DNA of 47,867 nucleotides. Source: Lachnospiraceae bacterium. GTDB taxonomy: Bacteria > Bacillota > Clostridia > Lachnospirales > Lachnospiraceae. The position numbers were made by a program, and so were the translations under genes. The notes under the pieces were generated by a model. The model saw only the letters and a list, made by a program, of their open reading frames with translations. It was not told the DNA's origin and searched no databases. Position 1 is the first letter of the stretch; the number at the start of each line of letters is the position of its first letter. This document shows, in pieces, positions 2,317-29,450 of the stretch. The DNA lies in the NCBI GenBank assembly GCA_030536685.1, contig JAUNPP010000004.1, positions 7,457 through 55,323 on the forward strand, given 5' to 3'.

Positions 2317-2462
2317 GGACAGATGTGATGTCCTGGGATGGGTGTCCAGGGGCAAGTGTTCAAGGGTAAGTGTTCAAGGGACGCACAAGCCCAATCGTAT
2401 AAGTCTCTCCGGAGGCGGCTCCGCAATGCCTCCTTACGAGACTTATACGATTGGGCTTGTGC
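2317..2462 (+). repeat. structured intergenic repeat, copy A (degenerate right end)
   Basis: The element starts with GGACAG (2317-2322) and carries the AGGGACGC box (2377-2384). It then has a perfect 25-bp inverted repeat: 2383-2407 pairs with 2438-2462. Inside the stem is AAGTC...GACTT, and the apex has GGAGG/CCTCC pairing, a small GCGG-CT-CCGC hairpin and an AAT strand. The terminal CTGTCC seen in copies B and D is missing. It lies between the convergent sortase and sigma-factor genes and may also serve as a terminator. Confidence 0.75.
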
Positions 2463-2561
2463 TGTGTTTCACAGTTTCCCACCATTATACCCCAGATTTA
2501 CTGTTAACTTATTCACTCCAAATCAGGATACTATCCTTTTCCGTTCCGTAATAAATTTCTC

Positions 2562-3389: not shown

Positions 3390-3525
3390 GGACAGATATG
3401 CAGCGACAACCAGCCACGTGTGGATGATACAAGTCCTAAAGGAGCGTATTGGGCGTTCACGCCCCTTAGCTCCGCAGGACTTCGTATCATCCACACGTGG
3501 CGTCCCTCCCCCATCACCCCTGTCC
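3390..3525 (-). repeat. structured intergenic repeat, copy B
   Basis: A 136-bp element bounded by GGACAG (3390-3395) and CTGTCC (3520-3525). The main stem is 24 bp with one bulged base: 3414-3437 with 3476-3500. The apical part read on the minus strand is GGAGC, TAAG, a GGGCG-TGAA-CGCCC hairpin, AATAC, GCTCC. The AGGGACGC box lies at 3501-3508 on the minus strand. It shares its flanks, core and architecture with copy D at 14.5 kb but its stem sequence differs. It lies between the divergent sigma-factor operon and adhE. Confidence 0.8.
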
Positions 3526-3870: not shown

Positions 3871-6495
3871 ATGAGTGAGACAATGGAATGGACCAACGAA
3901 ATGATTGACGCTCATGTGGATGAGCTGGTGACAAAGGCTCAAAGTGCTCTTGACACCTATTTGACTATGGATCAGGAAACCGTAGATTACATTGTTGCAA
4001 AATGCTCAGTTGCCGGTCTGGATCAGCATGGTGTGCTTGCGGAGGCTGCCGTACAGGAAACAGGCAGAGGTGTATTTGAGGATAAAGCAGTAAAAAATCT
4101 GTTTGCCTGCGAATACGTAACATCCAATATGAAACACCTGAAAACAGCAGGTGTGATCAAAGAGGATCGTTTAAACGGTATTGTGGAAATTGCAGAGCCT
4201 GTTGGCGTGATCTGCGGTATTATCCCGACCACAAACCCGACCTCAACTGTTATTTTCAAATCCCTGATTGCCATTAAGACCAGAAACCCTATTATTTTCT
4301 CCTTCCACCCTTCTGCTTACAACTGCTCTGTACAGGCTGCGGTCTGCATGCGCGATGCTGCTGTTGCAGCGGGTGCTCCTGCTGATTGTATTCAGTGGCT
4401 GGGATTAAAATCCATGTACGCAACCAATGCGCTGATGAATCATCCCGGTGTGGCTACCATTCTTGCAACCGGGGGAAATGCAATGGTAAAGGCTGCTTAC
4501 TCCTGTGGAAAACCTGCTCTTGGCGTAGGCGCGGGCAACGTACCTTCTTATATAGAAAAAACTGCTGATATCAAACGCGCTGTAAATGATGTGGTTCTTT
4601 CCAAATCATTTGACAACGGTATGATCTGTGCATCCGAACAGGCCGTTATCATCGATCACGAAATCTATGAGCCTGTCATGGCTGAATTTGCCCGTTTCAA
4701 AACCTACCTGGTCAATGCAGAGGAAAAAACAAAGCTGGAACTGTACATGTTCGGCGCAGCGGCTTACAGTGAAAACACAGCAGATGCCCACCTGAATCCG
4801 AATCTGGTCGGAAAGCCTGCGGTATGGATCGCTGAACAGGCTGGATTTTCAGTACCTGCAGATACACAGATTCTTCTGGCCGAATGTGAGGAGGTCGGTC
4901 CCTGCGAACCTCTGACCCGTGAAAAGCTTTCTCCGGTTCTCGCCGTGCTGAAAGCAGAATCCACCGACGACGGAATCGCAAAAGCAGCAGCTATGGTAGA
5001 ATTTAACGGACTCGGCCATTCTGCAGCAATTCATTCCAATGACCGCGACATTATCCTGCGGTTCAGCAAAGCAGTAAAAGCAATCCGTATCATTGAAAAT
5101 GCGCCCTCCACATTCGGCGGTATCGGCGGCGTTTACAATGCATTTATCCCCTCTCTGACACTCGGCTGCGGCTCCTACGGACACAACTCCGTATCCAACA
5201 ACGTCAGCGCCGTTAATCTGATCAACATTAAACATGTCGGAAGGAGAAATAATAATATGCAGTGGATCAAGCTTCCCCCTAAAATTTACTTTGAACGCAA
5301 TGCCATCCGCTACCTGCTCGATATGAAGGAAATGGAACGCGCTATGATCGTTACGGACCGCGGAATGTACACACTGGGATATGTTGCCAAAATTGAAGAT
5401 GTCATCAAATCCAGAAGAAATACGGTTGATATTGAGCTGTTCTTCGACGTAGAGTCCGACCCTACCTTCCACACCGTGCGCAAAGGTCTGGAACTGATGA
5501 AAAACTTCCGTCCCGACACCATCATCGCACTGGGCGGCGGCTCCGCAATGGACGCAGCCAAGGTAATGTGGCTTATGTACGAACATCCCGAAGTAAACTT
5601 CAACGATATCAAGCAGAAATTTATGGATATCCGCAAACGTGCTTTCAAATTCCCGGAACTGGGCAAGCAGGCTAAATTAATCTGTATCCCCACCACCTCC
5701 GGAACAGGCTCTGAAGTAACGCCATTTGCCGTTATCACAGATTCCGATGAAAACAAGAAATATCCTCTGACAGACTACGCTCTGACTCCCACGATTGCAA
5801 TCGTAGACCCTGAGCTGACCATGAGTCTTCCTGCCTCCATCGCAGCCGACACCGGTATCGATGTCCTGACCCACGCAGTAGAAGCCTTCGTTTCTATCCT
5901 GGCATCTGATTACACCGACGGTCTTGCAAAACAGGCAGTGAAAATGGTATTTGATTACCTGCCCCGCTCCGTAAAGAACGGTAAAAACGACCCCGAAGCG
6001 CGTGAAAAAATGCACAATGCCGCAACCATCGCCGGCATGGCATTTGCCAATGCATTCCTCGGCATGAACCACTCTCTGGCACACAAAATCGGCGGTGAAT
6101 TCCACGTTCCTCACGGACGCGCAAACGGAATCCTCTTACCTCATGTCATCCGCTACAACGGCACCGTACCGACCAAATTAAACATCTGGCCCAAGGTAGA
6201 ACGCTACAAAGCAGATGAAAAATACATGGAGCTGGCTCAGCTGATCGGCCTCAACCCCAAAAACACCAAAGAAGGTGTTGAAATGTTCGCAGATGCCTGT
6301 GAAAAGCTCTGCGCAGAAGTCGGCGTAGCCTGCAACATCAAATCCCAGAATATTTCTGAGGAAGACTGGAACGAAGCCGTACACCGCATCGCCATGAACG
6401 CATACGAAGACCAGTGTACCCCCGCAAACCCCCGTATGCCTATGGTGAAGGATATGGAAGAAATCCTGCATCTCATTTACGATTATAATTTTTAA
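3871..6495 (+). CDS. adhE: bifunctional acetaldehyde-CoA/alcohol dehydrogenase
   Basis: An 874-residue fusion that reduces acetyl-CoA to acetaldehyde and then ethanol with two NADH, closing the fermentative redox balance. The N-terminal aldehyde dehydrogenase domain (about 1-440) has its catalytic Cys at residue 253 (SFDNGMICASEQAV). The C-terminal iron alcohol dehydrogenase domain (about 460-870) has the GGGSAMDAAK nucleotide motif and iron ligands in FLGMNHSLAHKIGGEFHVPH. Enzymes of this type form cytoplasmic filaments (spirosomes). The start is fixed by GGAGG seven bases upstream. The length is normal and the gene stands alone, with its own promoter and a terminator-like hairpin behind it. 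Confidence 0.97.
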   Translation: MSETMEWTNEMIDAHVDELVTKAQSALDTYLTMDQETVDYIVAKCSVAGLDQHGVLAEAAVQETGRGVFEDKAVKNLFACEYVTSNMKHLKTAGVIKEDRLNGIVEIAEPVGVICGIIPTTNPTSTVIFKSLIAIKTRNPIIFSFHPSAYNCSVQAAVCMRDAAVAAGAPADCIQWLGLKSMYATNALMNHPGVATILATGGNAMVKAAYSCGKPALGVGAGNVPSYIEKTADIKRAVNDVVLSKSFDNGMICASEQAVIIDHEIYEPVMAEFARFKTYLVNAEEKTKLELYMFGAAAYSENTADAHLNPNLVGKPAVWIAEQAGFSVPADTQILLAECEEVGPCEPLTREKLSPVLAVLKAESTDDGIAKAAAMVEFNGLGHSAAIHSNDRDIILRFSKAVKAIRIIENAPSTFGGIGGVYNAFIPSLTLGCGSYGHNSVSNNVSAVNLINIKHVGRRNNNMQWIKLPPKIYFERNAIRYLLDMKEMERAMIVTDRGMYTLGYVAKIEDVIKSRRNTVDIELFFDVESDPTFHTVRKGLELMKNFRPDTIIALGGGSAMDAAKVMWLMYEHPEVNFNDIKQKFMDIRKRAFKFPELGKQAKLICIPTTSGTGSEVTPFAVITDSDENKKYPLTDYALTPTIAIVDPELTMSLPASIAADTGIDVLTHAVEAFVSILASDYTDGLAKQAVKMVFDYLPRSVKNGKNDPEAREKMHNAATIAGMAFANAFLGMNHSLAHKIGGEFHVPHGRANGILLPHVIRYNGTVPTKLNIWPKVERYKADEKYMELAQLIGLNPKNTKEGVEMFADACEKLCAEVGVACNIKSQNISEEDWNEAVHRIAMNAYEDQCTPANPRMPMVKDMEEILHLIYDYNF

Positions 6496-6611
6496 ATTAA
6501 TTTTACTTGTGAGTTGAAAGTTTTAACTCAACAGTAATTTTATAAGTTTGAAAAATCCAAAGTTTTTTAAAAAGCAGAAGTGCCTAAACAACACAAGTGC
6601 TTAAACAACAC

Positions 6612-6696
6612 AAAAGCCCAATGATACAGGTTCCCAGGAATCGGCGGCTATTCGATAGCCAATGGTTCCTGACGGTCCTGTATCATGGGGCTTTTT
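6612..6696. terminator. bidirectional terminator; also structured-repeat copy C
   Basis: A 19-bp stem with one mismatch (6612-6630 with 6677-6695) starts with AAAAGCCC and ends with GGGCTTTTT, giving T-runs in both directions between convergent adhE and the nuclease gene. The apex has AGGAA/TTCCT pairing, a GGCTAT-TCG-ATAGCC hairpin and an AAT strand. This is the same layout as copies A, B and D, and the lower stem keeps ATGATACAGG. The GGACAG ends are absent. Confidence 0.75.
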
Positions 6697-6700
6697 CGGA

Positions 6701-7387
6701 TTATTTCCGTCCACTTTTTATATAGGCTGCAAGCTCCGGGTAAAATTCCTGATTATCTTTAATCAGCCAACGCTTGAAAGCTGCAAACGGAGATGTATCT
6801 TCTAACTGCTTTTTCAGGAGATACTTCAAATCCTCCTGATCCTCATCCTCCGCCTCCTGATATTCCCGCACATATTCCTTGAACTGTGAAAGCTCTTTTC
6901 TCAAAGTTCTTCTCAATTTTTTTGCTTCCATCTGTTTTTGAGGAGTTGATCCGTAATATACTTCTCGAAGAAGCTTCGCTGTATTTTGAATTTCCAATCT
7001 TTCATCCAAAACCTCAAATATCAATTCTTCTTCCGTTCCAAAATACCCTTTTTTACGAAACGTAATTAATTCCTCTACATTTTCTTTTGTACAGTCAACA
7101 ATCGGTTCATATTTATTGAGCTTCGTATTATTGCAATGAGCACAGGCCAGAAATAAATTATTCCAATTATATTTTAATTCCACATCTCCTTTATGGGATC
7201 TGAGATGTTCTATTTGATATGAAGTAATCTGATTACTTTCGCAAATATAGCATTTACTATGGAACATTTCTCTCAGAGCTGCATTTACTTCAGGAGTATT
7301 GTATGTGCTGTTTTGCGTTTTCGCCTTCAGTAAAGATGCTATTGCTTTTTGTGCTTTATCCGTTAATTTCCGCTCAACTTTGATCAT
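6701..7387 (-). CDS. HNH endonuclease, PtuB-like (Septu-type defence)
   Basis: A 228-residue HNH nuclease. The metal-site cysteines are in SKCYICES and ACAHCNNTK, and the HNH core is in QIEHLRSHKGDVELKYNWNN. It matches the retron/Septu-associated HNH family (TIGR02646 type). Its start codon overlaps the stop of the upstream ATPase gene by four bases (ATGA), so the two are translationally coupled. In Septu systems the ATPase senses phage infection and releases or activates the HNH nuclease against nucleic acid. No reverse transcriptase or retron RNA is seen next to it. The assignment rests on family motifs and gene order, not on any activity. Confidence 0.8.
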   Translation of the reverse strand: MIKVERKLTDKAQKAIASLLKAKTQNSTYNTPEVNAALREMFHSKCYICESNQITSYQIEHLRSHKGDVELKYNWNNLFLACAHCNNTKLNKYEPIVDCTKENVEELITFRKKGYFGTEEELIFEVLDERLEIQNTAKLLREVYYGSTPQKQMEAKKLRRTLRKELSQFKEYVREYQEAEDEDQEDLKYLLKKQLEDTSPFAAFKRWLIKDNQEFYPELAAYIKSGRK

Positions 7388-10586: not shown

Positions 10587-10682
10587 GGGAATAGTTAGGT
10601 AACTGGTGTGCCTCCTGGTCTTCAAAACCTGTGTGGGGTGTTGATCATCCCGGGTGGGTTCGATTCCCACATGTTCCCGCCA
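10587..10682 (+). tRNA. selC: tRNA-Sec (UCA anticodon)
   Basis: A 96-base tRNA with the long variable arm expected of selenocysteine tRNA. The anticodon is TCA within CTTCAAA. The T-arm is GTGGGTTCGATTCCCAC and CCA is encoded at 10680-10682. It is charged with serine, converted to selenocysteinyl-tRNA by SelA and delivered by SelB. It is convergent with selB and selA on the opposite strand. Confidence 0.95.
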
Positions 10683-10712
10683 GAATTCATACAGCAAAGC
10701 TGTATCAGATAT

Positions 10713-10747
10713 AAAAAGTGCATAGTTTGAGCTATGCACTTTTTTTG
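10713..10747. terminator. bidirectional terminator between tRNA-Sec and selB
   Basis: AGTGCATAG pairs with CTATGCACT across a five-base loop. It is flanked by A5 on the left and T7 on the right, so it can end both the tRNA-Sec transcript and the convergent selAB transcript. Confidence 0.85.
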
Positions 10748-10776
10748 TGACAATTTATGTAAGGCAAAGCTGCGCC

Positions 10777-12696
10777 TTACTGCTGCAAAGCGGACTCTCT
10801 TTCACTTTCAGTTCCGTTTTTCCGTGTCAGATGAATGCTGTCAAAATACTCCAGAAGCGGCTTCACATTCTTTCTTGAAGTGTTCAGCAGATCCCGCACG
10901 CCGGAAATGTTGATCTTCCCTTCACTTTTCAGAACGGGAATGATCTTTTCCTTTGCATCCTCCAGATATTCAGGCAATGTATAGATATTTTCAAATACCT
11001 TAACCACCTTCTGTTCAAATACCATATTCTGCAGCACATCGTCCTTGTACTGCTCCTGCTCCTCCATAAAGGTGATTTCAGGAAAACGAAGGAAATTAAA
11101 GCCTGCTTCTCTGAGATTTTTGATAATCCATTTTTCCATCTTCTGGTAATTGCGGTCCTTGCGCAGACGGAAATCTGCCATATTGACGCATTCCAGCTCG
11201 ATTTTGATTTTTCCATCCTCTTCCCAGTGCTTTAAAAGCTGATCGAAAATCGCCTGCTTTGCCGAGGGAAGGAGTTTGTTGTGAAGCTCCGATTTAAACA
11301 TGCCCCGGCGGTATTTGTATGTCTCGTGGAACTCGTTCAGCATCAGCTGCAGATCCTCCAGAAGCTCCATTTCCCAGAAGCAGTGAAGCAGATAGCGGTC
11401 TTTTCTTACAGGGATCTCCGCGATCCGATGGTTTTCCTTCAGCTTTTCAATCGCAGGCTCCAGCTCTTCTGGCGGAAATGCGCCTTTATCCGCTATATTT
11501 TTCACAGTGATCATGGCCTTTTCGGCTTCTTTTACCATGTATTCCAGAATATCCTCTGCGCCGCCCTTCTCTTTCTGGCGCATTTCCTCCAGAGTTGCCT
11601 CCGCCATGCGCCGTTTCTTCACCGCAAGCTGGTCAAGCACCTCGCCGCCGGCAATTGTTTCCAGAGGAGAATAAAAACGCAGGATAAAACGGTCTTTTTT
11701 CCGCACGGCAATCGGTTCTTCCAAAAGCAGCTGCGCGTAACCTTCCTGCCCCGGCAGAAGCTCGTCTGTTCCGAGAAGTACCGCGCGGCAGAGCACCTGT
11801 GTCGTACCGATGCAAAGATGCAGACGGCCTCTGTTTTTAATGCTGCGCTCCGTCAGCTCCAGCATGCGGATCTTCACATCCAGACGATCCGTGTTCTGCA
11901 TACTGTCGGGAGGCGCCAGCACGTCGCCCCGGTGCACCTCCTCTTTCTTTACATTGGAAAGGTTGATCGCCACACGCTGACCCGCATAAGCAGTCTCCAC
12001 ATCCTGATCGTGCACCTGAATATTTCTGATCTTGCACGGCAAATCACGCGGATACAAGGCCAGTGGCGTTTCCTTATTTAAAATGCCGGAAATCAGTGTT
12101 CCGGTTACGATCGTTCCAAATCCCGGTAAGGAAAATACTCTGTCAATCGGAAGACGGGGAATTTCACTGATATCGCGCTCCCCGGCAGTTTCTGTCATCT
12201 GATCGATCAATGCGGTAAGCTCCGGTATTCCTTCCCCTGTTACGGAGGAAACGCAGACCATAGGAGATTCTGCATAAAGAGTCGTCTTTAACTCCTCCCT
12301 CAGCTCCTCCTGCATCATAGAAATCCACTCTGCATCCACCAGATCGCATTTGCTCAGCACCAGAATCGCATTGCTGACGCCAAGCTGCTCCAGAATTGCG
12401 ATATGCTCCCTTGTCTGCGGCATCATTCCCTCATCGGCAGCGATCAGAATCAGCACCAGATCCATTCCGACAACTCCCGTTACCATATTTCCCACAAATT
12501 TTTCATGTCCGGGAACATCAATAATGCCAATCCGGGTTTTACCTGGCAGATCAAAATGCGTAAATCCCAGCTCTATCGTAATGCCGCGGCGCTTTTCCTC
12601 TGTCAGCCGGTCAGCATCATATCCGGTCAGGGCTTTGATCAGGCTGGTTTTGCCATGATCAATATGCCCCGCCGTACCCACAATAATATTTTTCAT
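10777..12696 (-). CDS. selB: selenocysteine-specific elongation factor
   Basis: A 639-residue translational GTPase that brings Sec-tRNA to UGA codons followed by a SECIS hairpin. The G1 motif is GTAGHIDHGKT at residues 7-17, DVPGHE is G3 and SKCD is G4. EF-Tu-like domains II and III follow, and the C-terminal third has the winged-helix repeats that bind SECIS RNA. The start at 12696 is chosen because TTGGAGG lies eight bases before it; a start five codons upstream lacks a site. It follows selA by 95 bases and the two form an operon. Confidence 0.96.
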   Translation of the reverse strand: MKNIIVGTAGHIDHGKTSLIKALTGYDADRLTEEKRRGITIELGFTHFDLPGKTRIGIIDVPGHEKFVGNMVTGVVGMDLVLILIAADEGMMPQTREHIAILEQLGVSNAILVLSKCDLVDAEWISMMQEELREELKTTLYAESPMVCVSSVTGEGIPELTALIDQMTETAGERDISEIPRLPIDRVFSLPGFGTIVTGTLISGILNKETPLALYPRDLPCKIRNIQVHDQDVETAYAGQRVAINLSNVKKEEVHRGDVLAPPDSMQNTDRLDVKIRMLELTERSIKNRGRLHLCIGTTQVLCRAVLLGTDELLPGQEGYAQLLLEEPIAVRKKDRFILRFYSPLETIAGGEVLDQLAVKKRRMAEATLEEMRQKEKGGAEDILEYMVKEAEKAMITVKNIADKGAFPPEELEPAIEKLKENHRIAEIPVRKDRYLLHCFWEMELLEDLQLMLNEFHETYKYRRGMFKSELHNKLLPSAKQAIFDQLLKHWEEDGKIKIELECVNMADFRLRKDRNYQKMEKWIIKNLREAGFNFLRFPEITFMEEQEQYKDDVLQNMVFEQKVVKVFENIYTLPEYLEDAKEKIIPVLKSEGKINISGVRDLLNTSRKNVKPLLEYFDSIHLTRKNGTESERESALQQ

Positions 12697-12740
12697 AAAA
12701 AAATCCTCCAAATGTATCGTTCATCGACCTCTGCCGGTAT

Positions 12741-12800
12741 CAGTTCCCTTCGCTACTTCCCTTCACCAGTTTCTTTCGCTATTTCCCTTCGTCAGTTCCC
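12741..12800. repeat. short imperfect tandem repeat between selA and selB
   Basis: About 2.4 copies of a roughly 26-base unit. On the minus strand it has AACTG followed by GAAGGGAARTAGCGAA, and it starts at the selA stop codon. It fills most of the selA-selB spacer. No stem or promoter was recognised in it. Confidence 0.6.
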
Positions 12801-14216
12801 GGCAAGCACTGTCAGGCCTTCTTCTATAAAAAGAGACAGCTCTTCATCAAATACCGTCTGCATATGAAGCTCAAAACGTCCATCCTGAATTCTTCCGATC
12901 ACCGGGCGTTTTAAGCTGCGGAATGCGTGTTCCAGCCCTTCCGTTGTCAGAATGTCGAAAGCTGCGGAAGTTTTACACGGTACAATCACAACCCCTGCGC
13001 CTTCAAACTGGTGAAGCGGCAGCGTTCCGCCTCCCATCTGCGCCTCCATCGGGCAGACCGTAACCTCGTAACGGCCCTCAGCAGCCTCCTTCCAGGCATT
13101 CACAAGCTTCTGCGCCCGAAGCGCCTGTTCTTCCCTTGTGCTGGCAAACATCCTAAGTACCGGAATCCGTTCCATCAGCTGCGCAGGACTCAGACGGTAG
13201 TATTCTCTCCAGATCAGTTCCAGAGAAGCCGCCGTAAATTTATCAATTCGAAGCGCACGGGTCAACGGGTGCTTTTTGATCCGGTCAATATATTTCTTCT
13301 TTCCCGCAATGATCCCCGCCTGCGGGCCTCCCAGAAGCTTATCTCCGCTGAAACAGACCACATCTGCTCCTGCTGCCAGAACCTCCTGTACAGTAGGCTC
13401 ATGTGAAATGCCATAGCGGCGCAGATCCACTAAAATTCCGCTGCCCAGATCTTCTATAAACGGAATACTTGATTCCACACTTAGTTCCGCCAGCTCCCTG
13501 GTAGAAACGCTTTCTGAAAATCCCACAATCCTGTAATTGCTGGTATGTACCTTTAACAACACCCCTGTCCGCTCGCAGATTGCCTCTTCATAATCAGAAA
13601 GATGTGTTTTATTAGTCGTTCCAACCTCACAAAGCTCGGCTCCTCCCTGTCTGATCACATCCGGAACCCGGAATTTACCGCCGATTTCAATCTGTTCCCC
13701 GCGTGAAACAATAACCTCTTTTCCATACGCCAGCGCACTTAAAATCAAAAGAACCGCTCCTGCGTTATTATTCACCGCCATCGCGCTTTCCGCCCCGGTC
13801 ACTTCGCAGATCAAACGCTCAAAATGGGCATAACGCTCTCCCCTGTGTCCTTCTTCCAGGTTATATTCCAGATTGGAATAACCGGAAACCAGCTCCGCAA
13901 TCTTTTCCGCATGCTCTCTGGCAATCGGCGCACGTCCCAGATTCGTATGCAGAATCGTACCAGTTGCATTGATCACACGCCGGAAGCCACTTTCCTCCTG
14001 TCTGGTAAGCTCTGTACAGACCTTGTCCGGCAGCCGCTGAAGCTCCTTCTCAAAAAGCTCAGCATCCCCCTGTTTCAAGAGCACACGCACCTTTTCCATC
14101 TCTTCACGGATACACTCCGTCACCGCTTTTTGTCCAAATTTTCTCACCAGCTCCTGAATCTGCGGCATCGCAAGAAGCACATCCACCTTCGGAATTTTCC
14201 GGTATAATTCTCTCAT
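12792..14216 (-). CDS. selA: L-seryl-tRNA(Sec) selenium transferase
   Basis: A 474-residue PLP enzyme that converts seryl-tRNA(Sec) to selenocysteyl-tRNA(Sec) using selenophosphate; bacterial SelA is a decamer. The PLP lysine is Lys293 in CFSGDKLLGGPQAG. Other family motifs are NATGTILHTNLGRAP and SNLEYNLEEGHRG. The length is normal. The first gene of the selA-selB pair, it is preceded by a coding-like frame that overlaps its ATG by four bases. selD, which supplies selenophosphate, is not in the window. Confidence 0.96.
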   Translation of the reverse strand: MRELYRKIPKVDVLLAMPQIQELVRKFGQKAVTECIREEMEKVRVLLKQGDAELFEKELQRLPDKVCTELTRQEESGFRRVINATGTILHTNLGRAPIAREHAEKIAELVSGYSNLEYNLEEGHRGERYAHFERLICEVTGAESAMAVNNNAGAVLLILSALAYGKEVIVSRGEQIEIGGKFRVPDVIRQGGAELCEVGTTNKTHLSDYEEAICERTGVLLKVHTSNYRIVGFSESVSTRELAELSVESSIPFIEDLGSGILVDLRRYGISHEPTVQEVLAAGADVVCFSGDKLLGGPQAGIIAGKKKYIDRIKKHPLTRALRIDKFTAASLELIWREYYRLSPAQLMERIPVLRMFASTREEQALRAQKLVNAWKEAAEGRYEVTVCPMEAQMGGGTLPLHQFEGAGVVIVPCKTSAAFDILTTEGLEHAFRSLKRPVIGRIQDGRFELHMQTVFDEELSLFIEEGLTVLAGN

Positions 14217-14370: not shown

Positions 14371-14472
14371 ATACAGAAATATCTGCAATTTAATTTTATT
14401 ATATGTTATTCCCGTTTAAATGTAAAGAGATGCAGGGGCGGTTACTGTTCAGAGATTTCTGGAGAGATTTCT

Positions 14473-14611
14473 GGACAGTAGGGGTGTTCAGGGGACGCAA
14501 ACTGTCTATGATGCAAGTCTGTCCGGGGCTAGGGGGTGCTTTCAGCACCAATACGCCCCTTGCAGACTTGCATCATAGACAGCTTGCTGGTTTTTGCAGC
14601 TCCTACTGTCC
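14473..14611 (+). repeat. structured intergenic repeat, copy D (best preserved)
   Basis: A 139-bp element bounded by a perfect 10-bp inverted repeat, GGACAGTAGG (14473-14482) and CCTACTGTCC (14602-14611). Next comes the AGGGGACGC box. The main stem is perfect over 20 bp (14502-14521 with 14563-14582) and extends by GCAA/TTGC past one mismatch. The apex is GGGGC, TAGGG, a GGTGC-TTTCA-GCACC hairpin, AATAC, GCCCC. It lies between the end of hypD and selA and can be compared directly with copy B. Confidence 0.82.
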
Positions 14612-14627
14612 GAAAATGTTAACGTTC

Positions 14628-17054
14628 TCACTCGTACCGGGCATTTGTACCGGGCATTTGCTGCTCCGTCCGCTCAATGATTTCATCCTGCAGAGCCTTG
14701 CTTAAATTCCGGAAATGGTCGCTGTAGCCTGCCACGCGCACGATCAGATCCCTGTATTCATCCGGATGTTTCTGCGCCTGAATCAAAGTCTCACGGTCTA
14801 TTACATTAAACTGAATATGATGTCCGTCCAGATTGAAATAGGTACGAATCAGATTCGCCATCTGCGTAAGCCCATCTTCTCCGGCTACCGTCGAAGGAGC
14901 AAATTTCTGATTTAACAGCGTTCCGCCGGTACTTAAATGATCCATACGCGAAGCCGATTTGACAACGGCTGTCGGACCGCAGATATCCGCACCTTTTTCC
15001 GGTGAAATCCCCTCCGATACAGGCTTGCCGGCCAGCCGGCCATTGGGACTTGCCATCATAACCTCACCAAAATACACATGACAGGTCGTTGGCAGCATAT
15101 TGATGCGGTAGCTTCCCCCCTTCATGTTCGGACGTCCCGTTACGCTGTTATAATAGTAATCAAATATCTCCCTCATGATCTCATCCGCATAGGAATCATC
15201 ATTTCCATACTTGGGAGTACGGTTTTTCACAAGATTCAAAATCCGGTCATGTCCATTAAAATTGTCCTTAAGCGCCTCTAAAAGCTCACTCATGGTAAAT
15301 TTCCTGTGATCAAATACATTGTATTTTACAGCAGCCAGACAGTCTGTTATCGTACCAATCCCCACTCCCTGGATATAGCTGGTATTATAGCGGGCGCCTC
15401 CTGCATTGTAATCCTTTCCCCTGGCAATGCAGTCATTGGTCAGAATGGACAGAAACGGAACCGGCATATAATCGGCATAAATTTTCTCAATCACGTTATT
15501 TCCCCGCAGCTTGATCTTAAGAAACCACGAAAGCTGTGTCTTCCATGCCTCAAACACCTCATCAAAACTGCCAAATTCCTCTGCATTTCCGGTGTGAGGC
15601 CCCAGCTGGCGGCCGCTTACATGGTCGTAGCCGTCAAACAATGCCAGCTCAAAAATTTTCGGCAGATTGAAATATCCGGTCAGAATATATGCTTCATTGC
15701 CAAATGCGCCGGTTTCCACGCAGCCGCTGGTACCGCCTCTGCGCGCGTCCGCAAGACTCTTCCCTGCATTTAAAAGCTCCTGCACAATAGCATCCGTATT
15801 ATAAAACGCAGGCTGACCCCATCCTTTTCTGGAAATTTCACAGGCTTTTTTCAAAAATGCTGTCGGTGTTTTTCTGCTGATCTGCACGTTGGAGCTTGGC
15901 TGCAGAAGCTTCATTTCATCCATACATTCCAAAATCAGATAACTGACCTCATTTACGCCATCCTGCCCATCAGGTGTAATACCACCGGTATTGATATTGG
16001 CAAAATCCGTATAGGTGCTGCTTTCTTTCAAAGTAATTCCCACCTTGGGCGGTGCGGGCTGGTTGTTAAATTTGATCCAGAGGCATTCCAGAAGCTCAAG
16101 CGCCTGCTCTCTGCTCATCCTTCCATCCTCCACATCCTTTTCATAAAACGGATAGATATGCTGATCCAGTCTTCCCGGGCTGTACGCATCCCATGGATTT
16201 AATTCGCTGGTAACACCCAGATGCACAAACCAGTACATCTGCAGCGCCTGCCAGTAGGTCTGCGGACGGTGAGCCGGTACTGTACGGCAGTTTTCTGCAA
16301 TCTGCAAAAGCTCCTTTCTGCGGACGGCGTGCGTTTCGGCAGCCAGCTTCTCTGCGTAATCTGCATAACGCTCTGCCAGTATCAGAATCGCGTCGCAGGC
16401 AATTCCCATCGCCTTTAATTCCTGCTCCTTATTCAATGCTTCCGGGTCGTGAAGATAATCCAGCCTGTCAATTGCCGCCTGAATATCCTCCTTATGCTCC
16501 AAAAAGCCCTTATTATAGATATTTTCAGAACCAACCGTGTGCCCCGGTCCCCGCTGTTCCATAAATTCTGTAAAAATGCCGCTTTCATAGGCCGCCTTCC
16601 ACTCCGGCGTCATATGATCAAGGATTTTATGCCGGATCGAACGCTTCTCCCAGAACGGGATCATCTCCTTCTCCTGAAATTCATAATCCTCCTCTGCTAC
16701 CTTAAAGCTGATCAGCTCTCTGTCATTCATCACCTTCAGATCCTGCACGGTATGACAGCACAGCTCCGGAAATGTCGGGGATGCCTGCGGTCCGCTTCCC
16801 TTTTCTCCTACTATCAGTTCTCCTTCATTGATACAAAGCGTTTTATGTGCAAAATAATGCTTCAAGCACAGCGCACGCAGCTCGGGAACAGAAACCCTGC
16901 CTTCATATTCCCTGTAAACCTCCGTAAAAAGGCGCGCACGTTCCATATCAATATGAGCCTGTGTCTCAAGGCTCTGCTTCCTTAAACGGCGAATCCTCTC
17001 ATTCATTCCCCGTTCTCCAGCTTTCAATCCCTTAATCATTTCTCTCTCAGACAT
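14628..17054 (-). CDS. hypD: glycyl radical enzyme, probable trans-4-hydroxy-L-proline dehydratase
   Basis: An 808-residue glycyl radical enzyme. The radical Gly is residue 776 in VRVAGYSDHF. The thiyl Cys is residue 445 with Glu447 in GGTSGCVETGAFG. The stretches NNQPAPPKVGITLKESSTY, TDFANINTGG and EFMEQRGPGHTV match what I recall of hydroxyproline dehydratase (HypD), which turns trans-4-hydroxyproline into pyrroline-5-carboxylate. GGGGGAGG fixes the start, which overlaps the activase stop by eight bases. No pyrroline-5-carboxylate reductase gene is adjacent. The C-terminus is extended by an 11-12 base duplication (TACCGGGCATTTG twice on the plus strand). Another dehydratase of the same clade is the main alternative. 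Confidence 0.85.
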   Translation of the reverse strand: MSEREMIKGLKAGERGMNERIRRLRKQSLETQAHIDMERARLFTEVYREYEGRVSVPELRALCLKHYFAHKTLCINEGELIVGEKGSGPQASPTFPELCCHTVQDLKVMNDRELISFKVAEEDYEFQEKEMIPFWEKRSIRHKILDHMTPEWKAAYESGIFTEFMEQRGPGHTVGSENIYNKGFLEHKEDIQAAIDRLDYLHDPEALNKEQELKAMGIACDAILILAERYADYAEKLAAETHAVRRKELLQIAENCRTVPAHRPQTYWQALQMYWFVHLGVTSELNPWDAYSPGRLDQHIYPFYEKDVEDGRMSREQALELLECLWIKFNNQPAPPKVGITLKESSTYTDFANINTGGITPDGQDGVNEVSYLILECMDEMKLLQPSSNVQISRKTPTAFLKKACEISRKGWGQPAFYNTDAIVQELLNAGKSLADARRGGTSGCVETGAFGNEAYILTGYFNLPKIFELALFDGYDHVSGRQLGPHTGNAEEFGSFDEVFEAWKTQLSWFLKIKLRGNNVIEKIYADYMPVPFLSILTNDCIARGKDYNAGGARYNTSYIQGVGIGTITDCLAAVKYNVFDHRKFTMSELLEALKDNFNGHDRILNLVKNRTPKYGNDDSYADEIMREIFDYYYNSVTGRPNMKGGSYRINMLPTTCHVYFGEVMMASPNGRLAGKPVSEGISPEKGADICGPTAVVKSASRMDHLSTGGTLLNQKFAPSTVAGEDGLTQMANLIRTYFNLDGHHIQFNVIDRETLIQAQKHPDEYRDLIVRVAGYSDHFRNLSKALQDEIIERTEQQMPGTNARYE

Positions 17055-18136: not shown

Positions 18137-18452
18137 TCCAGCATCCGTTGCACCTGCAAAGTATTGCAAGACTGCGGCGGCGAAATTAAAGTAATATCCT
18201 GTGGCAAGACTGCGGCGGCGGAATTACAGTAATATCCTGTGGCAAGACTGCGGCGGCGGAATTACAGTAATATCCTGTGAAAGGGACCATAGAGAACGCC
18301 GGTACTTAACGATCGGGCTGTCTGAAAGACAGTTCGAGAGTTTAGTTCCGCTGCGTTCGATCAGAGCGAGAGCGAGTCCCCGAACAGGATATTACTGTAA
18401 TGGAGCCTTCACAGCCTTTTATAACAATAAAATAAACTGTTATAAAAAGCAT
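18137..18452 (+). repeat. 141-bp TIR element, copy 1, with amplified left arm
   Basis: The core (18261-18401) has perfect 18-bp terminal inverted repeats (18261-18278 and 18384-18401). A 38-bp unit holding the left arm occurs three times in tandem (18168-18205, 18206-18243, 18244-18281), the first copy degenerate. To the right, TTTTATAACA...TGTTATAAAA forms a hairpin. To the left, TTTTCCAGCATCCGTT is shared with copy 2 at 29.3 kb. It fills most of the divergent spacer between the hypD operon and the transporter. An open frame across it is a property of the repeat, not a supported protein. Confidence 0.85.
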
Positions 18453-29204: not shown

Positions 29205-29450
29205 CAAGCTTTTTATAATAGTTTTTTTTATTGTTATAAAAGGCTGTGAAGGCTCCATTACAGTACAATCCTGTTCGGGGACACGCTCTCGCTCGGATCG
29301 AACGCAACGGAACTAAACTCTCGAACTGTCTTTCAGACAGCCCAATCGTTAAGTACCGGCGTTCTCTATGGTCCCTTTCACAGGATTGTACTGTAATTCC
29401 GCCGCTGTAGTTTTGCGATATTGCAGGTTTAACGGATGCTGGAAAAACAT
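29205..29450 (-). repeat. 141-bp TIR element, copy 2
   Basis: Inverted relative to copy 1 at 18.3 kb. The core (29257-29397) is exactly 141 bp with perfect 18-bp terminal repeats (29257-29274 and 29380-29397). Compared with copy 1, each arm differs at two bases, and the two arms change together so that pairing is kept. The flanking TTATAACA hairpin (29212-29241 region) and the TTTTCCAGCATCCGTT flank are shared. It has a single left arm, unlike copy 1. It lies downstream of rpsR and upstream of the UPF0340 gene. Confidence 0.85.

What the first reader, a model, noticed from the sequence alone, without database searches (positions are those of the whole stretch)
14473..14611. A family of structured intergenic repeats with covarying stems
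Copies at 2317-2462 (A), 3390-3525 (B, inverted), 6612-6696 (C) and 14473-14611 (D) share one architecture: a long outer stem containing a variant of ATGATACAAGTC, an inner 5-bp stem, a small apical hairpin and an unpaired AAT or AATAC strand on the 3' side. B and D also share GGACAG/CTGTCC ends, a GGGACGC box and a GCTGGTT flank. The inner stem is GGGGC/GCCCC in D, GGAGC/GCTCC in B, AGGAA/TTCCT in C and GGAGG/CCTCC in A. The apical hairpins differ completely but stay paired. Keeping pairing while changing sequence points to selection on a folded RNA or DNA hairpin. It could be a REP/MITE-like element moved by a distant enzyme, or an uncatalogued structured RNA. I do not recognise it as a named motif.
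Basis: seen in the sequence. Interest (0 to 1): 0.85.

Follow-up and report, generated by a model that had tools for sequence, protein, structure and literature searches.

The report
Mobile hairpin repeats with covarying stems
The four hairpins belong to a family of roughly 90 scattered repeats per genome, found in only three related bacteria, in which the stem letters change but pairing is kept; some copies spread as small transposons, and older ones sit just after genes, where they probably end or protect the gene's RNA.

Summary
A covariance model finds all four hairpins (D 117, B 88, A 69, C 46 bits), about 90 copies in this genome, and members in 2 of 3 congeners. Nothing turned up in about 400 other genomes of the family. 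Covariation is very strong: across three species 98.8% of cells pair and 20 of 25 pairs have two-sided changes. No Rfam family matches.

Copy D is a right-truncated member of a 269-bp MITE with 11-bp terminal inverted repeats (GTTACTGTTCA) and an 8-bp target duplication. A congener without the hairpin carries other MITEs with the same ends, so the hairpin rides a DDE-type chassis. No partner transposase was found, and the RAYT reading is not supported.

Older, diverged copies cluster just after stop codons in gene-sense orientation, with a T-run after the stem. Some are orthologous between species. In congeners, mismatches are G·U (19) and never A·C outside one special position; young D-type copies lack that bias. 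This points to selection on RNA at retained 3'-end copies, probably as terminators or 3'-end protectors (inferred, untested). Closest kinds: REP, SPRITE and MITE repeats.

The parts
14441..14623 (+). Copy D: right-truncated member of the 269-bp MITE. Left terminal repeat GTTACTGTTCAG at 14441 (with a 12-bp tandem duplication AGAGATTTCTGG); the right part of the full-length form is missing
14493..14593 (+). Copy D hairpin. Outer arms 14497-14521 and 14563-14587; inner stem GGGGC 14525-14529 / GCCCC 14555-14559; internal loop TAGGG 14530-14534 / AATAC 14550-14554; apical GGTGC/GCACC 14535-14539 / 14545-14549
   Evidence: 117.1 bits, E 4.6e-27; z -10.75
14588..14596 (+). TGGTTTTTG tract right after the stem, conserved family-wide (possible U-tract of a terminator)
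   Evidence: T-run in 62 of 66 copies, A-run upstream in 1 of 66
3390..3525 (-). Copy B, with GGACAG/CTGTCC ends; hairpin match 3407-3505
   Evidence: 88.3 bits, E 7.1e-20; z -12.46
2317..2468 (+). Copy A, starting 14 bases after the stop codon of the sortase gene 1458-2303; hairpin match 2379-2468
   Evidence: 69.3 bits, E 3.8e-15; z -11.63
6606..6703 (+). Copy C, the most diverged, between the 3' ends of convergent genes 3871-6495 (+) and 6701-7387 (-); looks like a terminator
   Evidence: 45.9 bits, E 2.6e-9; z -6.89

Best explanation
This is a genus-restricted family of mobile palindromic repeats whose core is a ~85-105-nt hairpin. Shown: (1) one family of ~90 copies here, with structure kept by two-sided changes; (2) the D subtype moves, or moved, as a non-autonomous DNA transposon (MITE) with 11-bp inverted ends and 8-bp target duplications, on a terminal-repeat chassis that also occurs without the hairpin in a congener; (3) diverged copies lie just past stop codons, in sense, and several are orthologous between species. 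Inferred: the partner is a DDE transposase acting in trans, now absent from or unassembled in these genomes; insertions near stop codons were tolerated and then kept because the sense RNA hairpin plus U-tract ends transcription or protects the mRNA 3' end. At those loci pairing is kept by selection on RNA, while fresh copies mutate freely. Template switching or conversion between copies may supply the two-sided changes.
For: Family and structure; covariation 85 two-sided cells against 13.8 shuffled in own genome and 167 against 39.8 over three species. Transposition: TSDs 66/80 matched letters in 10 copies against mean 32.5 and maximum 48 in 20,000 mispairings; hairpin-less copy L049 with perfect TSD AAAACAAG; same ends with 8-bp TSDs in congener G001, which has no hairpin. 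Placement: diverged copies have the left gene in sense 26 vs 10, p=0.011, D-type 13 vs 14, and no copy lies inside a gene; stop codons 27-75 nt upstream, often TAG. Terminator look: T-run in 62/66 copies. Orthology and RNA-level signal: orthologous gene ends carry hairpins with changed but paired stems; G.U vs A.C mismatches 19:0 in congeners, 7:2 in old own copies, 3:7 in D-type.
Against: No transposase with these ends was found. The mobility of the diverged types is not shown: TSDs were tested only for the D type. The G.U/A.C counts pool related copies, so p-values are optimistic, and in the own genome the old-copy bias is not significant (p=0.18). The placement bias could reflect tolerance of insertions at gene ends rather than function. 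The U-tract starts 3 nt after the stem, which is not ideal for a terminator, and a terminator alone does not explain the conserved bulged G, internal loops and GGGAC box.
Confidence: 0.68

Rival explanations
1. A purely selfish foldback element. Arms stay complementary because replication template switching, or conversion from other copies, copies one arm onto the other; the hairpin has no RNA function and 3'-end copies survive only because insertions there are harmless.
For: Two-sided changes are mostly Watson-Crick to Watson-Crick with few G.U intermediates, often in blocks (L026 changes five adjacent pairs at once). One copy (L023/L047) has its internal loop turned into perfect pairing, as template switching predicts. 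Neighbouring copies within G003 share stems that differ from their orthologs. The mechanism is documented for RNA hairpins (PMC8794818).
Against: Arm copying should also erase the conserved asymmetric internal loops and bulge, yet these are kept in nearly all copies and in three species. The G.U-only mismatches in congeners (19:0) are not expected from a DNA-level process. Sense orientation of old copies is not explained.
Confidence: 0.2
2. A REP system moved by a RAYT (HUH tyrosine) transposase that was lost or lives in a relative.
For: Biology resembles REPs as described in PMC3733652: location just past genes and between convergent genes, tail-to-tail pairs, TAG stop supplied by the repeat, an unpaired conserved foot beside the stem.
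Against: Only broken IS605-type Y1 remnants in the three hairpin-bearing genomes, no hairpin near any Y1 gene; 8-bp TSDs; neither GTAG nor a CGTC tag in the described order; size 85-105 nt against 20-40.
Confidence: 0.06
3. Unrelated intrinsic terminators with chance similarity.
For: C lies between convergent gene ends and looks like a terminator.
Against: Model scores, ~90 copies with shared unpaired motifs, cross-species covariation.
Confidence: 0.02

Closest known systems
[quoted passage not shown] Correia elements, QMITE2
   Same: Short, no gene, inverted ends, 7-9-bp direct repeats, stable stem-loop, moved in trans (review PMC10969869); D type matches
   Different: Parent IS not found; the hairpin core with cross-copy covariation also exists without these ends, in other flanking arms
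SPRITE / BOX / RUP repeats of Streptococcus pneumoniae
   Same: SPRITE is a mobile repeat resembling Rho-independent terminators (PMC10969869), as suggested here
   Different: Not compared at sequence level here; different host; no Rfam match of ours
REP elements, GTAG and CGTC superfamilies (PMC3733652)
   Same: Palindromic, high copy, 3' of genes, convergent pairs, may supply TAG stop codons, unpaired motif beside the stem
   Different: 85-105 nt against 20-40 bp; no GTAG tag; GACGC/GCTGG in the wrong order for CGTC...CCA; no RAYT
Rickettsia palindromic elements (RPE)
   Same: Long (~100 bp) palindromic repeats, genus-level, partly conserved in place
   Different: RPEs sit inside genes; none of ours does. 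From memory and PMC3733652; not compared by sequence

Membership tests
MITE (D type) | Terminal inverted repeats | tested here: met
   GTTACTGTTCA...TGAACAGTAAC, 11 bp, in full-length copies
MITE (D type) | Target-site duplication | tested here: met
   8 bp; 66/80 letters against at most 48 in 20,000 mispairings. Copy D itself is right-truncated, so its own TSD cannot be read
MITE (D type) | Short and without a transposase gene | tested here: met
   269 bp; the one copy with a DDE gene (L047) is an IS4-like element inserted into it with its own 10-bp duplication
MITE (D type) | Autonomous partner with the same ends | tested here: not met
   None seen in own genome or congeners by exact end pattern, IS256, IS6 and right-end searches; assemblies are fragmented, so absence is weak evidence. 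Not required of every MITE
MITE (diverged copies A, B, C and 3'-end types) | Target-site duplication | not tested
   Ends of the diverged types are not sharply defined; duplications were not tested
GTAG REP / RAYT system | GTAG tag beside a 20-40-bp palindrome | tested here: not met
   Flanks are GGGAC and TGGTTTTTG; stem 25 bp, hairpin 85-105 nt
GTAG REP / RAYT system | RAYT gene flanked by the repeat | tested here: not met
CGTC REP | CGTC at one end, CCA tail at the other, stems 8-9 bp | tested here: not met
   GAC/TGG lie on the opposite ends and stems are ~25 bp
Known Rfam RNA family | Match at or above gathering score | tested here: not met
   (only sub-threshold microRNA models, which any long stem matches)
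Intrinsic terminator | GC-rich stem followed by a U-tract, 3' of genes | tested here: met
   T-run in 62/66 copies, old copies 3' of genes in sense; activity not testable here

The most novel reading that the evidence does not exclude
A mobile, genus-specific RNA element: the conserved bulged G, the recurrent A.C pair next to it, the internal loops and the GGGAC/UGGUUUUUG flanks form a binding site for an RNA-binding protein or nuclease, and transposition has spread this site to the 3' ends of dozens of genes, building a new post-transcriptional regulon that is then kept by selection on RNA pairing.
Probability: 0.2. Interest if true: 0.78.

Novelty: new variant of a known kind. Interest (0 to 1): 0.52.

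Why it matters
The family offers, within one genus, the whole path from fresh transposon insertions to positionally conserved, RNA-constrained elements at gene ends. It makes testable whether compensatory stem changes come from selection on RNA, from template switching, or both: young copies, old copies and orthologs can be compared directly. It also warns that strong covariation across repeat copies is not by itself proof of a functional RNA.

Tried and rejected
RAYT/Y1 mobiliser: searched PF01797 in own genome and three congeners; only remnants in hairpin-bearing genomes, and no hairpin near any Y1 gene. IS256 (PF00872) in the own genome and IS6 (PF13610) in all four congeners as partner families: none. 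The transposase in L047 looked like a partner at first but is an insertion into the repeat. Plasmid and phage collections: no match. GTDB scan by pattern: only the congener MAG SUG1763. (neighbour orientation) used wrong strands for loci L061-L090 and was replaced. The pooled G.U/A.C count mixed in conserved internal loops and was replaced. I did not fetch the whole chromosome of congener G001 in pieces to hunt for the partner, because the tool does not lay whole genomes out; I took targeted stretches only. Reading the element as CGTC-REP was considered and rejected on the order of the tags.

Full report
What was checked. The four hairpins exist at the stated places and share the stated architecture. 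Each folds far better than shuffles, z from -6.9 to -12.5. A covariance model built from 25 own-genome hairpins (alignment A1, model R1) scores D 117.1, B 88.3, A 69.3 and C 45.9 bits in the window with filters off. A, B and D belong to the model's training family, so their scores are partly by construction. C was not in the training set and still reaches E 2.6e-9.

Copy number and range. A blastn of D against its own genome gave at least 40 places. R1 and the three-species model R2 give roughly 80-90 distinct loci (136 and 93 matches, the former including reverse-strand matches of the same palindromes). Among relatives, two of three congeners carry the family (35 and 17 matches) and the third, G001, none. 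397 genomes of the family in 334 genera gave no hit outside the own genome, though only ten candidates per genome were scored there. An exact pattern over the GTDB contigs hit only one MAG, Lachnospiraceae bacterium SUG1763. No plasmid, phage or Rfam match.

Anatomy of the hairpin. Reading 5' to 3': GGTGTCCAGGGGAC, then a ~25-bp stem whose first ~12 pairs are free to change and whose upper part reads ATGATAC(G)AAGTC / GACTTGTATCAT, with a bulged G on the 5' side in most copies (45 of 82 own, 16 of 18 congener by a simple pattern). An asymmetric loop follows, then an inner stem, then a terminal part that differs by subtype: a loop TGAAAAT in congeners and some old own copies, or TARGG [apical hairpin] AATAC in D-like copies. 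After the stem comes TGGTTTTTG. Four pairs never vary among 27 hairpins of three species: G5-C98, C6-G97, A24-U79 and U27-A76.

Covariation. Own genome: 97.1% of cells paired, 23 of 35 pairs with two-sided changes, 85 such cells against 13.8 in shuffles, and far above slid controls. Three species: 98.8% of cells paired, 20 of 25 pairs, 167 cells against 39.8. Repeat copies are related and can be copied into each other, so this shows that pairing is maintained, not by which process. Changes are mostly Watson-Crick to Watson-Crick and sometimes in blocks, which template switching can produce (PMC8794818). One copy even had its internal loop turned into perfect pairing (L023/L047). Yet the asymmetric loops and bulge survive almost everywhere, which arm copying alone would erase.

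The D type is a MITE. Full-length copies are 266-271 bp (one short form 175), start GTTACTGTTCAG, end TGTGAACAGTAAC and are flanked by 8-bp duplications, e.g. GATGCCTT in L007 and AAAACAAG in the hairpin-deleted L049. Over ten copies 66 of 80 letters match, against a mean of 32.5 and a maximum of 48 in 20,000 mispairings. The flanks were entered by hand, with one base of slack allowed equally in the control. In congener G001, which lacks the hairpin, other short elements have the same ends and 8-bp duplications, e.g. ACTACCTG in L184 and GCTAGGAG in L196; a 33-bp one is present in the own genome (L206). So the terminal chassis and the hairpin are separable. TIRs plus 8-bp duplications are the mark of a DDE-type enzyme (established knowledge); the enzyme itself was not found. 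Copy D in the window starts at 14441 and lacks the right end, so its own duplication cannot be read.

The older, diverged copies. None of the copies examined lies inside a gene. Diverged copies have the left neighbour in sense 26 times against 10 (p=0.011) and the right neighbour convergent 21 against 8; D-type copies show no left bias, 13 against 14. The stop codon is usually 27-75 nt before the hairpin, often a TAG at the element's edge, as reported for REPs (PMC3733652). Close pairs are tail-to-tail. Window copies A (after the sortase gene) and C (between convergent genes) fit this; B and D do not. Six gene ends carry a hairpin in two species each, five between G002 and G003 and one between G003 and the own genome, with protein identity 87-98% and stems that differ but still pair. 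In five of these pairs nine differences are two-sided and ten more are G.U exchanges. The only A.C cells are at one position next to the bulge, where A.C recurs in all three species, and there is one other mismatch.

RNA or DNA. A one-sided transition makes G.U or A.C equally often; only RNA pairing tolerates G.U. Excluding the special position, G.U:A.C is 19:0 in congeners, 7:2 in old own copies and 3:7 in D-type copies. Copies are not independent, so the numbers indicate a trend. They fit fresh copies without constraint and retained copies with RNA-level constraint.

Most likely working. Inferred: a DDE enzyme acting in trans scatters copies; those landing in sense just after a stop codon are kept; transcribed, the hairpin with its U-tract stops polymerase and/or blocks 3' exonucleases. 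The conserved bulge, loops and GGGAC box go beyond what a terminator needs and may be transposase or protein contacts. No expression data were available.

Comparison and verdict. It works like REP or SPRITE-type repeats, and the D type is a MITE by tested features. It does not meet the tag, size or RAYT criteria of GTAG or CGTC REPs. I call it a new variant of a known kind.

Noticed in passing
L045 (C204:2346 ff), L050 (C218), L130 (C27): A second small element (about 150-200 bp, ends TGTACTG...CAGTACA) sits in the internal loop (TAAG) of the hairpin in at least two copies, which suggests a preferred target inside the hairpin.
   Followed up: partly
L047:1262-3023 (-): An IS4-like element (446-aa DDE_Tnp_1 transposase) has inserted into the terminal repeat of one copy with a 10-bp duplication GTTCAGAGAT.
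   Followed up: yes
window 18213-18418 and 29257-29397; also L012, L015, L021, L091, L097, L101, L116, L121: Another dispersed repeat (CGGCGGCGGAATTACAGTANTATCCTGT ... GAGAACGCCGGTACTTAACGATCGGGCTGTC ... ACAGGATATTACTGTAAT), itself an inverted repeat, often next to ACGGTAAACGCATGATTTT pieces and near the hairpin copies.
   Followed up: no
L206:1946-1978: A 33-bp element made of little more than the two GTTACTGTTCA-type ends, with an 8-bp duplication ATTTTTGC: possibly the smallest form of the same transposon chassis.
   Followed up: partly
hairpin outer stem, position of A before C(G)AAGTC (model A3 columns 21/81): An A.C mismatch recurs at the same position next to the bulged G in all three species, possibly an A+.C pair that matters for recognition.
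   Followed up: partly
window 10587-14216: Selenocysteine locus (tRNA-Sec 10587-10678, SelA 12792-14216) directly beside copy D, followed by a glycyl-radical enzyme of the PFL-like family (14628-17054) and a radical-SAM protein, probably its activase.
   Followed up: no
G002:C131 about 15167-15554 and L114/L110/L122: Tandem arrays of the hairpin or its parts (about 150-bp period in G002), showing local amplification besides dispersal.
   Followed up: no
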